Position numbers and translations under genes: made by a program. A stretch of 60,387 nucleotides of DNA from an uncultured bacterium (GTDB lineage Bacteria > Zixibacteria > MSB-5A5 > CAIYYT01): the NCBI GenBank assembly GCA_903930455.1, contig CAIYYT010000070.1, positions 1-60,387 of the forward strand. Direction: 5' to 3'. Below the pieces are notes generated by a model, which saw nothing but the letters and a program-made list of their open reading frames with translations, did not search any database and had not been told where the DNA came from. Below, piece after piece: positions 31,747 to 40,335 of this stretch (its first letter is position 1; each line of letters begins with the position of its first letter).

Positions 31747-32160
31747 TCAGCTACCGAGAGTTTCTCTAATTCTTATTAGACATCCCCTGGGATTGCCTCT
31801 TAGTTGGTGCTCCCAGAGTCGGATCACGGTCCATCCGCGTTTTCTGAGGGTCCTTGACACTAAGCGATCGCGTTTGCGGTTTGCTTCGATTTTGGTGGTC
31901 CAGAATGACTTGTGTGTCGCAGGTACTCGGCGACACTTACGACATCCATGCCAGAAGCACCCATCCACGAAAATGGCGACCTGTTTTTGATCAAAGACGA
32001 AGTCGGGTTTACCATAGATATCTGCCGCGTACACCCGCCAGCCCCTTAGCCCCGAGGCCGCTAGCCTTGCGCGTAAACGCCATTCCGTTGATCGATTACC
32101 TCGGTTACGGATTGACGCCATGACTTCGGAACGCTTCTTTATGGAAAAAACATCTGGCAC
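31747..32160 (-). CDS. Vsr-like very-short-patch-repair endonuclease
   Basis: 137 residues, the length of Vsr. N-terminal VFSIKKRSEVMASIRNRGN (charged helix region with 'RSEVMASI' and 'GNRSTEWRLR'), then the PD-(D/E)xK-type core PDFVF with Asp53, VAIFVDGCFWHGC with His71, a cysteine pair that binds zinc in Vsr, VPATHKSFW and the C-terminal RGWTVIRLWEHQLR. E. coli Vsr nicks next to T:G mismatches left by deaminated 5-methylcytosine. No cytosine methyltransferase is present in the window, which is odd for a true Vsr. It is the last gene of a tight minus-strand trio with an HNH nuclease (six bases upstream) and a nuclease-helicase. GTG start. Confidence 0.93.
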   Translation of the reverse strand: MPDVFSIKKRSEVMASIRNRGNRSTEWRLRARLAASGLRGWRVYAADIYGKPDFVFDQKQVAIFVDGCFWHGCRKCRRVPATHKSFWTTKIEANRKRDRLVSRTLRKRGWTVIRLWEHQLRGNPRGCLIRIRETLGS

Positions 32161-32166
32161 TAGAGG

Positions 32167-32730
32167 CTACGTCGTTGGCTCAAATTTCTTCTTGAGTTCG
32201 AGAAATATGAGACGCTGGTCGCTTCTTGGAAGGCGACGGATGGTTCTGATCACACTCAAAGTATTGGGAGCGGGTGGAACTACCAGATTGCTGCGGCCTT
32301 CCTTGCAGTTCCTGCAGAAAACTCTCAGGTTCTCGTCGATGGTTGGCCCGCGCCGATCGTCATGATCGATGTGGAGCGTTATCTTGCGGCCAGGGTGGTA
32401 GGGATCGGGATCCGAGGGCGTCACCCCGCACATCGAACAGATCAAGCCGTCACGTTCAATTATCCTCGTACGCTGCGCTTTGTCGATTCTGAGGGCTAAG
32501 CGCGGTTCACGTTTAAGACTCACCAGTAAGTACTCATTAGGTTTCAAGTCGGGCCTGTCCCTACGAGAAAGTATTTGCATCCCCTCATCGTTTCGCAACT
32601 CCCGTATTCTCCTTTGGAAGTCTCTGATCTTGGCAATCCGAGCGATTTGCTCGGTTGTGACTATTTTGCCGACCTTGCCTTCAAGAAACTCCCTGATCTT
32701 GTCTCTCGCGCCTATGTTAGATCTTTTCAA
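32167..32730 (-). CDS. HNH endonuclease
   Basis: About 187 residues. The N-terminal half is helical and basic, probably winged-helix-like DNA binding ([21 protein letters not shown], cited by REFLEGK and TTEQIARIA). The C-terminal half is a zinc-bound HNH: CSMC, then the catalytic [11 protein letters not shown], an asparagine in ENLRVFC and CRNC with the second zinc pair. Such domains cut DNA in restriction systems, homing elements and phage packaging. The start is uncertain. A TTG at 32730 with GGAAG nine bases before gives a 14-base overlap with the upstream helicase gene, while an ATG at 32766 has no ribosome binding site and would overlap by 50 bases. The neighbours suggest a nucleic-acid defence role. 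Confidence 0.85.
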
Positions 32731-34693
32731 AACCGATTTCTTCCAAATACTTGAAAGTAGAATCATAAAACTCGTGTTTGCGTGTCAAGTCATCTGAGTC
32801 CCCTGATGGGACGACAATCACCATTCCCTGTCTGGCACGAGTTAGAAGAACACGGTAAGCATTCTTCAGGTAAACTTGACGTTCTTGCTTTCTGATGCGA
32901 TTCCAATGGCTTCCGACAAAAGAGAAGTGATCCCATCCTCCTGGGGTATAGCGAAAATCGGCATCCCAGGTGACACATGCCCAATCTAACTCAAGTCCCT
33001 GGACCTGAAACTCCGTGACAACATCCTCAAGGAAATAGGAGGAGCGGACGTCGTCTTTCCCGTCAAGAAACCAATGAATTGGATCGACTGGCGATTTCAC
33101 ATCTATTGCATGTGGCTTCAATCGCTCCGCCTGGGAAGAGACTACAATGCCGTAGCGCTCAGACCCACGCGCCTTTTCTTTGAGCCATTGCTTTGCCTTG
33201 TTGAGATCGCGGGTTATCACAATGGGGTATTTACCTTTCACGTTTGTCAACGTCGTGCGTGCTTCATCTAGCTTCAAATCAAGCAGTTGTTTGACCAGTA
33301 AAGAAACATGCTCGGCGCGAAAAGAACGCATTGAAACAGAAAGATGTAATTCGTCCTTGTTGGTAACAATTGAGTGTTCTCTGACCTTCTCCAGAACTCT
33401 CTCTGCCCCATATTCACTGTCAGTAAGATGAGAAGATATGTAAATGTTCCAATTTGGATACGAACGGTTCAAAGATTCAATCCATTCGCAAATTCCTGCC
33501 TCTCCGGTGTTAATTTCTTGACCTCCACCAACGAGACAAACAACAACAGCCCAATCTGGATGACGATCGAGACAGGAGATTAAGAACTCAGGCTCAGATT
33601 TGTTGAAACTTGGCGTGTTCTTCTTAAGTCGCATAAAATTCGCTGTTTGCCGCAAATCCCACGCTCGTTGCGCTTCATCAAATAGAGCGACATGTTCAAT
33701 GGGTGGCTTCTTGAAGTCCACAAGACATTCATCACGAAAGTTGTGCACATTCTGAATGAACATCTTAACATCACTCATTGCTTCACTCTTCTTAAATTTG
33801 ACTCCTCGTTCCTTTTCGTGTCGAACTTTGTCTCGAGCTAAGGCTTCGCGAAGAATAGCAACAAGCGGGCCATTGCCTGAAAGAAAAACACTGTAAAGAT
33901 CACTATCTTTGTCAATATGCTTTGTCGCTATGTTGAGTCCAACTAAAGTCTTGCCTGCACCTGGGACGCCGGTGACAAAACAGATGGCTTTGTGCGACTT
34001 CTCTCTTGAAAGGCGAATGATTTCGGAGACTGCATCAGATGTTGCGCTGAGATTGATTGCGCTTGCGTCACTTCGAGAGATTTCGCTTACGGAATGGCCA
34101 TTGTACAATGCCATTGCCGCCTCGATGATTGTTGGAGTTGGTTGGTATCTTCCGGTTTCCCACTGAGTTGGGTTAATCTCGTCGCTATTGGCAAAGCACA
34201 AAACATCTGTGATTACTTGTTTGAGCAATTCCCCGTTGCATTTTATCGGAAAGAGCATTCTGTCATTGTGTGGAGTAGTAGAAATTGTTGTAGAAACATT
34301 CCTCGCTTTGGTTGCTATTAATACTGGAGCAACAAAGTGCTCGTGACTTGTCTCGTGAAAGTTTTTCAAATCGAGTGCATAGTCAAATACTTGGTCTATT
34401 GCGTGTGACGGAAATTCACTCTCGCCCACCTTAAACTCAAGGACAAATATAGTCGAGCCAGTAATGACTACAACATCAATTCGTCTTCCCATACGTGGAA
34501 TTGAGTATTCAAAATAGACCGAGCCTTCATGAGGTCGTAATGCCTTCTTGAGGATGTCAATTTCCTCTAGCCATGCGTCTCGTTGAGTCTGCTCCAAAGC
34601 GAAATCGTTACTTCGCACAAGTCTGCCGAGTATCTCATTTGGTGCTGCTTTTAGAAAATCGGTGATTGTGTCAGAATAATACTCTCGTTTCAT
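32717..34693 (-). CDS. PD-(D/E)xK nuclease fused to DUF2075 P-loop helicase
   Basis: 658 residues. Residues 1-170 look like a restriction-type nuclease: YFEYSIPR, then RRID (Asp73), then FVLEFK (Glu86, Lys88), the D...ExK arrangement. The DUF2075 domain follows with Walker A GVPGAGKT at 242-249, Walker B LFDEAQ near 337-342, and C-terminal helicase-like motifs ([14 protein letters not shown] and [12 protein letters not shown]). DUF2075 is common in mobile and defence-related proteins. The ATG at 34693 has only a weak GAAGA; an open frame reaches 35017, but the first 108 residues are not protein-like. The gene is visibly AT-richer than its surroundings, suggesting transfer. It is the first gene of a trio with HNH and Vsr-like nucleases. 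Confidence 0.85.
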
Positions 34694-39837: not shown

Positions 39838-39935
39838 GTAACCCACCCAGCGGGTGGGTTTTTCATTAAATCGACACGCTGAATAATGCAGGGAATCCGG
39901 ACATCGGCTGCTATCGACGGTTATCTCACCGCACA
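39838..39935 (+). repeat. Dispersed repeat, copy 2
   Basis: Same orientation as the copy at 39131-39226. Here the CCCACCC-AGC-GGGTGGG hairpin is followed by TTTTT, so it could terminate transcription. Confidence 0.8.
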
Positions 39936-40335
39936 TTCTGCAGCCGTAGTCATGGAACTCACCCGCTGGGTGAGGTACAAAGTGAGGTACAAGTGTGGTC
40001 GTCAGCAGCGCACATAGACGCGGTGGTCAGACACAAGACACAGCCAGCGAAGAAAAACCCACCCGACGCAAGGCTTTGGGTTGGGTACACAGTTTCAATC
40101 TTCTATATTTTACGGGAATAAAACGCTTGAGAGTTTGTATTAGGGGGTGGCAGTACTGGATAGCAGGGAAATTGTTAGGGCGAGATGGGTTTGCCTCGTC
40201 CTCCGTCCCGCCGTGCTTCTATTAGTTAGGACGCGCATCGGAGACACATACGTGAGACGCTGTGTGAGTCTTGAGGAGGTGAGTTTGTAGATCGGGTTCC
40301 CAGTGAAGCGCAGAACCCGACTTACTTGGCTATTC

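What the first reader, a model, noticed from the sequence alone, without database searches (positions are those of the whole stretch)
31747..34693. Candidate defence module: PD-(D/E)xK-DUF2075 helicase, HNH nuclease, orphan Vsr-like nuclease
Three nucleic-acid enzymes are packed on one strand (overlap, then a six-base gap), and the nuclease-helicase gene is AT-richer than its housekeeping neighbours. The first protein has D73...E86-x-K88 plus Walker A and B. Vsr normally accompanies a cytosine methyltransferase, yet none is in the window. This suggests the Vsr fold is recruited as an effector nuclease with the helicase and HNH protein, possibly against phage or plasmid DNA. I do not recognise this trio as a named system.
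Basis: partly seen in the sequence, partly recalled or inferred. Interest (0 to 1): 0.75.

Follow-up and report, generated by a model that had tools for sequence, protein, structure and literature searches.

The report
Solo helicase-nuclease beside broken restriction system
A widely traded candidate anti-phage gene (a nuclease joined to a helicase) sits in front of two genes left over from a restriction-modification system that has lost its DNA-methylating half; the same gene is found next to fragments of such systems in many unrelated bacteria.

Summary
The three genes are real. Gene 1 (HEL) is a full member of PADLOC's candidate defence family PDC-S41: a NERD-like PD-(D/E)xK nuclease with a Schlafen-group-3 helicase, listed but, as far as I found, untested. 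HNH and Vsr are not a new effector pair. The window's genome and its sister species lack any C5 methyltransferase. The HNH has lost a metal ligand its relatives keep (N/H to K), yet HNH and Vsr stay under purifying selection. Best reading: PDC-S41 has taken over a C5 restriction locus whose methyltransferase is gone; HEL is the likely defence effector, and HNH–Vsr are retained parts of unknown present job. One unexpected pattern: HEL travels as a bare gene, and Vsr pieces, mostly truncated, lie within 700 bp of it in 18 of 80 loci, against 1 locus in twice as much control sequence. That recurrence deserves follow-up. The trio as a unit was found only in this genus.

The parts
32717..34693 (-). 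HEL: PDC-S41 nuclease-helicase (N-terminal NERD/RecB-like PD-(D/E)xK domain, C-terminal Schlafen-group-3 SF1 helicase), 658 aa, GC 44.5%
   Evidence: PADLOC PDLC05014 1.7e-289; PF09848 6.7e-83; predicted fold nearest SLFN11/14, RecD, UPF1
34430..34477 (-). HEL nuclease motif D73 ... E86-x-K88
   Evidence: positions checked; D73, E86, K88, Q101 and Y105 invariant in 35 homologs
33947..33970 (-). HEL Walker A GVPGAGKT (residues 242-249)
   Evidence: G242, G245, G247, K248, T249 invariant
33668..33685 (-). HEL Walker B LFDEAQ (residues 337-342)
   Evidence: F338, D339, E340, A341, Q342 invariant
32825..32854 (-). HEL helicase motif [12 protein letters not shown] (residues 614-623)
   Evidence: invariant in 35 homologs
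32167..32766 (-). HNH: type II restriction-endonuclease-like protein, N-terminal winged helix plus HNH; true start uncertain (the TTG at 32730 would leave about 14 nt of overlap)
   Evidence: PADLOC REase_II; orthologous family lies in C5-methyltransferase operons
32302..32304 (-). K155 of HNH where homologs have N or H (third HNH metal ligand by comparison with other HNH enzymes)
   Evidence: alignment of the HNH core
31747..32160 (-). Vsr: very-short-patch-type mismatch endonuclease, orphan
   Evidence: TIGR00632 9.2e-34; aligns to E. coli Vsr 1cw0, 6.6e-21; no C5 methyltransferase in genome

Best explanation
The locus is a C5-type II restriction-modification operon that has lost its cytosine methyltransferase and now carries, in front of its HNH and Vsr genes, a horizontally acquired single-gene candidate defence, PDC-S41 (HEL). 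Shown: the families; the operon context of HNH and Vsr in relatives; the absence of any C5 methyltransferase in both species that carry the trio; the altered HNH metal site; the bare-gene transfer of HEL; purifying selection on all three genes. Inferred: HEL is the working defence gene. Its SF1 helicase motor (Schlafen-g3/RecD-like) would move along phage DNA, or an SSB-coated replication intermediate as proposed for other nuclease-helicases, and its RecB-like nuclease would cut it, with no methylation mark for self. The HNH is probably impaired as a cutter, which would explain survival without a protecting methyltransferase. Vsr may still repair or nick mismatches. HNH and Vsr are kept for some residual function that I cannot name.
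For: HEL is PDC-S41 at 960 bits over full length; PDCs are single-gene candidates found by guilt-by-embedding and most are unvalidated (PMC12988326). HEL homology between loci stops within about 13 bp of start and stop codon in nearly every close relative, its tree mixes phyla and its GC differs from its neighbours. HNH family beside a C5 methyltransferase: 6/6 phylum loci, 15/15 viral-contig loci and 4/5 plasmid loci. Vsr and C5 methyltransferase co-occur in the phylum (21/25 against 11/108, p=7e-13). No C5 methyltransferase in G000 or G001. K155 replaces N/H only in window and L001; one divergent homolog has G. dN/dS window against L001: HEL 0.088, HNH 0.187, Vsr 0.148; neutral simulation expects 66 and 77 amino-acid changes, observed 15 and 17. 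Neighbours of HEL in other genomes include C5 methyltransferases, HNH_2 restriction enzymes, Mrr and Vsr, less so 3.5 kb away.
Against: Purifying selection on HNH and Vsr means they are not mere debris, so a joint function with HEL is not excluded. Residual methyltransferase sequence was not found at the junction, so loss of the methyltransferase from this very locus is inferred from relatives. The gene order (HEL-HNH-Vsr) differs from the relatives' MTase-Vsr-HNH. Loss of the third metal ligand need not abolish activity. No defence activity of any PDC-S41 member was found in the papers searched.
Confidence: 0.62

Rival explanations
1. A true three-gene defence system: HEL unwinds and degrades, HNH (winged helix plus HNH) recognises, and Vsr nicks invading DNA; no methyltransferase is needed because HNH no longer cuts on its own or cuts only modified DNA (type IV-like).
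For: Same strand and tight spacing; trio conserved, at the same place, in two species; HNH and Vsr under purifying selection after methyltransferase loss; the nearest solved HNH by sequence is the modification-dependent EcoKMcrA, but weakly (0.0058).
Against: Trio seen only in this genus; none of the other HEL loci has this HNH; HNH and Vsr have a clear independent history with C5 methyltransferases; base composition differs between HEL and the pair.
Confidence: 0.15
2. HEL is a genuine component of some C5 restriction-modification systems (MTase-HEL-Vsr), acting as an ATP-dependent restriction nuclease; the window is an eroded descendant in which an HNH took part and the methyltransferase was lost.
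For: C5 methyltransferase pieces within 700 bp of HEL in 9 loci against 1 in control; L034 has C5 MTase, HEL and an intact Vsr; L033 and L080 have HEL followed directly by a C5 MTase.
Against: Most HEL loci have no methyltransferase near; at L028 and L031 unrelated methyltransferases are cut to their first 50-110 aa in front of HEL, which looks like replacement; order and orientation vary.
Confidence: 0.15
3. HEL is not a defence gene but a DNA-repair nuclease-helicase, and its location beside restriction genes reflects general genomic hot spots.
For: Fold near UPF1, RecD and SLFN; deep conservation (75% mean column identity in A2).
Against: Sporadic (8 of 133 genomes of the phylum; 13 of 400 in a second phylum), horizontally spread, and specifically close to restriction genes against matched control positions.
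Confidence: 0.08

Closest known systems
PADLOC PDC-S41 (phage defence candidate, single gene)
   Same: HEL matches the model end to end (residues 1-657 on 1-652 of 657, 960 bits)
   Different: Here it is followed by HNH and Vsr; no member was found tested in the papers searched
C5-methyltransferase type II restriction operon with Vsr and HNH (for example L092-L095 in the same phylum)
   Same: HNH (41-53% identity) and Vsr families, tight operon
   Different: Methyltransferase missing genome-wide, HNH third metal ligand changed, gene order changed, HEL in front
Nhi and AbiO nuclease-helicases
   Same: Nuclease and helicase joined in one chain (general knowledge); weak PADLOC matches around Walker A
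   Different: Only residues 223-269 match, 4e-5 and 1e-5, against 960 bits for PDC-S41
Human Schlafen SLFN11/SLFN14 helicase domain
   Same: Best solved-structure matches of the predicted HEL fold, 1e-6 to 3e-5; same Pfam helicase family
   Different: 8-12% identity, low TM-scores (about 0.3), PD-(D/E)xK nuclease in place of the Schlafen RNase core
E. coli Vsr (very short patch repair)
   Same: Same fold and family, D51 and H69 equivalents kept
   Different: H64 equivalent is D, as in some relatives; no Dcm partner in the genome

Membership tests
PDC-S41 | Full-length match to the PADLOC model | tested here: met
   1.7e-289, 960 bits, 1-657 on 1-652/657
PDC-S41 | Located among or inside defence systems | tested here: met
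   Vsr and C5 MTase pieces enriched at its flanks; restriction families among neighbours
PDC-S41 | Protects against phage | not testable with these tools
   No experiment possible; none found in the papers searched
Type II restriction-modification system | Restriction endonuclease gene | tested here: inconclusive
   HNH matches REase_II models and its family sits beside C5 MTases, but its third metal ligand is K
Type II restriction-modification system | Cognate DNA methyltransferase | tested here: not met
   No C5 methyltransferase in the genome or sister species; two N4/N6 methyltransferases lie on other contigs
Vsr of the Dcm/VSP repair pathway | Vsr family match above curated cut-off | tested here: met
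   TIGR00632 116 bits against 97.85
Vsr of the Dcm/VSP repair pathway | C5 methyltransferase partner | tested here: not met
Nhi | Full-length match to Nhi | tested here: not met
   Only residues 229-269, 4.2e-5
Named three-gene defence system | Trio co-occurs in unrelated genomes | tested here: not met
   Only window and L001/G001 of 80 HEL loci and 133 phylum genomes

The most novel reading that the evidence does not exclude
PDC-S41 specifically takes over Vsr-marked C5 restriction-modification loci. It moves as a bare gene and repeatedly lands in, truncates or replaces vsr and its methyltransferase in unrelated bacteria, either by a targeted (homing-like) process or because it displaces such systems functionally. 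The window is a stage in which HNH and Vsr survive and have been kept for a methyltransferase-free role beside HEL.
Probability: 0.18. Interest if true: 0.75.

Novelty: new variant of a known kind. Interest (0 to 1): 0.45.

Why it matters
It corrects a tempting reading: the orphan Vsr here is the tail of a methyltransferase-less restriction operon, not a newly recruited effector of a named trio. It also adds context for an untested single-gene defence candidate with a Schlafen-type helicase: the gene travels alone and is found again and again in the ruins of C5 restriction systems. If that is targeted or selective replacement, it would show how one defence displaces another, and it gives a simple sequence mark (truncated vsr beside HEL) for following such turnover.

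Tried and rejected
Remnant of the methyltransferase in the 77-bp spacer of L001: its translations read by eye against the C-termini of the relatives' enzymes showed nothing recognisable. Empty-site comparison in the next genus (G002): the LemA gene is there but its left neighbours differ, so no clean empty site. HEL as a phage gene: no relative in viral contigs, one unverified faecal scaffold among phage records. Strict incompatibility of HEL with C5 methylation: C5 methyltransferase in 1 of 13 HEL genomes against 3.8 expected, p=0.07, and some genomes with HEL hold full-length C5 MTases, so not shown. HEL carried by a larger element with fixed flanks: rejected, homology ends at the gene. Solved-structure sequence searches for HEL gave nothing convincing. 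The HNH model was too poor around the metal site (pLDDT about 50-60) to place K155. Literature on PDC-S41 and on DUF2075 in defence: none found.

Full report
Observation. Three genes lie on the minus strand at 34693-31747. HEL (658 aa) has the Schlafen-group-3 helicase domain PF09848 (the former DUF2075) at 6.7e-83 and a weak NERD nuclease match. Vsr passes the curated NCBI cut-off and aligns with the solved E. coli enzyme. HNH is weak in Pfam but matches PADLOC type II restriction enzymes. Only HEL is AT-rich. The 50-nt overlap is doubtful: in the sister species L001, 77 extra bases separate the genes and HNH starts after an in-frame stop, at a TTG.

HEL is already listed. It matches PADLOC PDC-S41 over its whole length at 960 bits. 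PDC genes are single-gene candidates found by guilt-by-embedding, mostly without experimental test (PMC12988326; PMC11514479). I found no paper that names PDC-S41. Relatives were found at many places in public genomes of many phyla (235 stretches; the 80 kept are 65-96% identical), and a tree of 77 of the sequences mixes phyla freely. In nearly every locus the DNA similarity begins within a few bases of the start codon, or inside the gene, and ends near the stop codon. So the gene is exchanged as a bare unit. It is sporadic: 8 of 133 genomes in the phylum.

HNH and Vsr have another history. In the same phylum five further genomes carry this HNH family at 43-53% identity and one more distantly. 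In all six it sits in an operon with a C5 cytosine methyltransferase and Vsr. All 15 viral-contig homologs lie beside a C5 methyltransferase, as do 4 of 5 plasmid homologs inspected, one of which is a fused Vsr-HNH protein. Across the phylum 21 of 25 genomes with Vsr have a C5 methyltransferase, against 11 of 108 without Vsr (p=7e-13). The exceptions are the window genome, its sister species, and two genomes whose Vsr lies near a contig edge. The window genome (3.77 Mb, rated 100% complete) and the sister species (96%) have no C5 methyltransferase at all.

State of HNH and Vsr. In the HNH core the residue after the last cysteine is N or H in the homologs (G in one divergent one; one further divergent homolog lacks the cysteine), but K155 in window and L001. 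By comparison with other HNH enzymes that position is the third metal ligand (general knowledge). This would fit an enzyme that no longer cuts well, and so can exist without its methyltransferase. But neither gene is decaying. Between the two species dN/dS is 0.187 for HNH and 0.148 for Vsr, against 0.088 for HEL and 0.086 for the neighbouring transporter. A neutral simulation predicts 66 and 77 amino-acid differences and nearly certain stop codons, against 15 and 17 observed and none. The trio sits beside the same transporter gene in both species, so it was probably already in place in their common ancestor.

The unexpected pattern. Profile searches of the 700 bp on each side of HEL find Vsr pieces in 18 of 80 loci (113 kb) but in 1 locus among control stretches 2.5-6.2 kb away (220 kb) (p=5e-8). 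Several of the 18 are short or weak matches. In a list of 19 loci with Vsr near HEL (window and L001 counted once, one locus from a separate survey of a second phylum included), 17 are truncated. Examples: L061 keeps Vsr positions 1-68 upstream; L042, L020 and L018 keep only the last 25-35 residues, starting at the HEL stop; L028 and L031 have the first 50-110 residues of two different C5 methyltransferases before HEL and a headless Vsr after it. The Vsr label needs at least 14 changes on the HEL tree, 8 of them forced by well supported branches. Neighbours also include HNH_2 restriction enzymes, C5 methyltransferases and Mrr, less so at distance. So HEL repeatedly lies in the remains of C5 restriction systems. 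Whether it causes that, replaces them, or simply lands in loci with fast turnover cannot be told from these data. The 80 loci are not a random sample (they are the closest relatives), and related loci are not independent, so the p-values are rough.

Mechanism. HEL's predicted fold (mean pLDDT 78, the 522-568 segment poor) is nearest to human SLFN11/14, RecD and UPF1, that is SF1 helicases. With the RecB-like nuclease motif the most likely action is ATP-driven movement along phage DNA or a replication intermediate with cutting by the N-terminal domain, without a methylation mark for self. Several nuclease-helicase defences are triggered by phage SSB (PMC10732053); whether HEL is remains untested. 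HNH has an N-terminal winged helix in the model, so a DNA-binding role without cutting is possible.

Verdict. The genes are real and the orphan Vsr is real, but the trio is best read as a listed single-gene defence candidate in front of a restriction remnant, not as a new three-part system. The recurrent link between PDC-S41 and broken vsr genes is the part worth pursuing.

Noticed in passing
L157:4107-5465 (Pandoraea oxalativorans plasmid): Single protein fusing a Vsr domain to the HNH family seen here, directly after a C5 methyltransferase; shows how closely the two are linked in restriction operons.
   Followed up: partly
L026, L027 around HEL: A second Schlafen-g3/NERD protein of 804 aa (PADLOC: PDC-S41 4e-17, Nhi 2e-15, AbiO 1e-14) directly before HEL, with a short protein that looks like MazG by eye upstream and a Fic protein downstream.
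   Followed up: partly
L025, L074, L078: HNH_2-type restriction endonuclease genes start about 12-15 bp after HEL, or end 13 bp before it; a second kind of restriction gene linked to HEL.
   Followed up: partly
window genome contigs C17 and C90 (L102, L101): Two N4/N6-type DNA methyltransferases with nearly identical starts; one is followed by a small gene that looks like a GIY-YIG nuclease by eye.
   Followed up: no
window:39131-39195, 39838-39902, 39956-39978: Short interspersed repeat with a palindromic core (AACCCACCCAGCGGGTGGGTT), in direct and inverted copies.
   Followed up: partly
L190:692-2644 (MT836127.1): HEL homolog (48%) on an unverified faecal phage scaffold, the only phage record with one; also on two Persicobacter plasmids.
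   Followed up: partly
L153, L154 (G049, G087): Two further phylum genomes with Vsr but no C5 methyltransferase found; both Vsr genes are near contig edges, so a partner may be missing from the assembly.
   Followed up: partly
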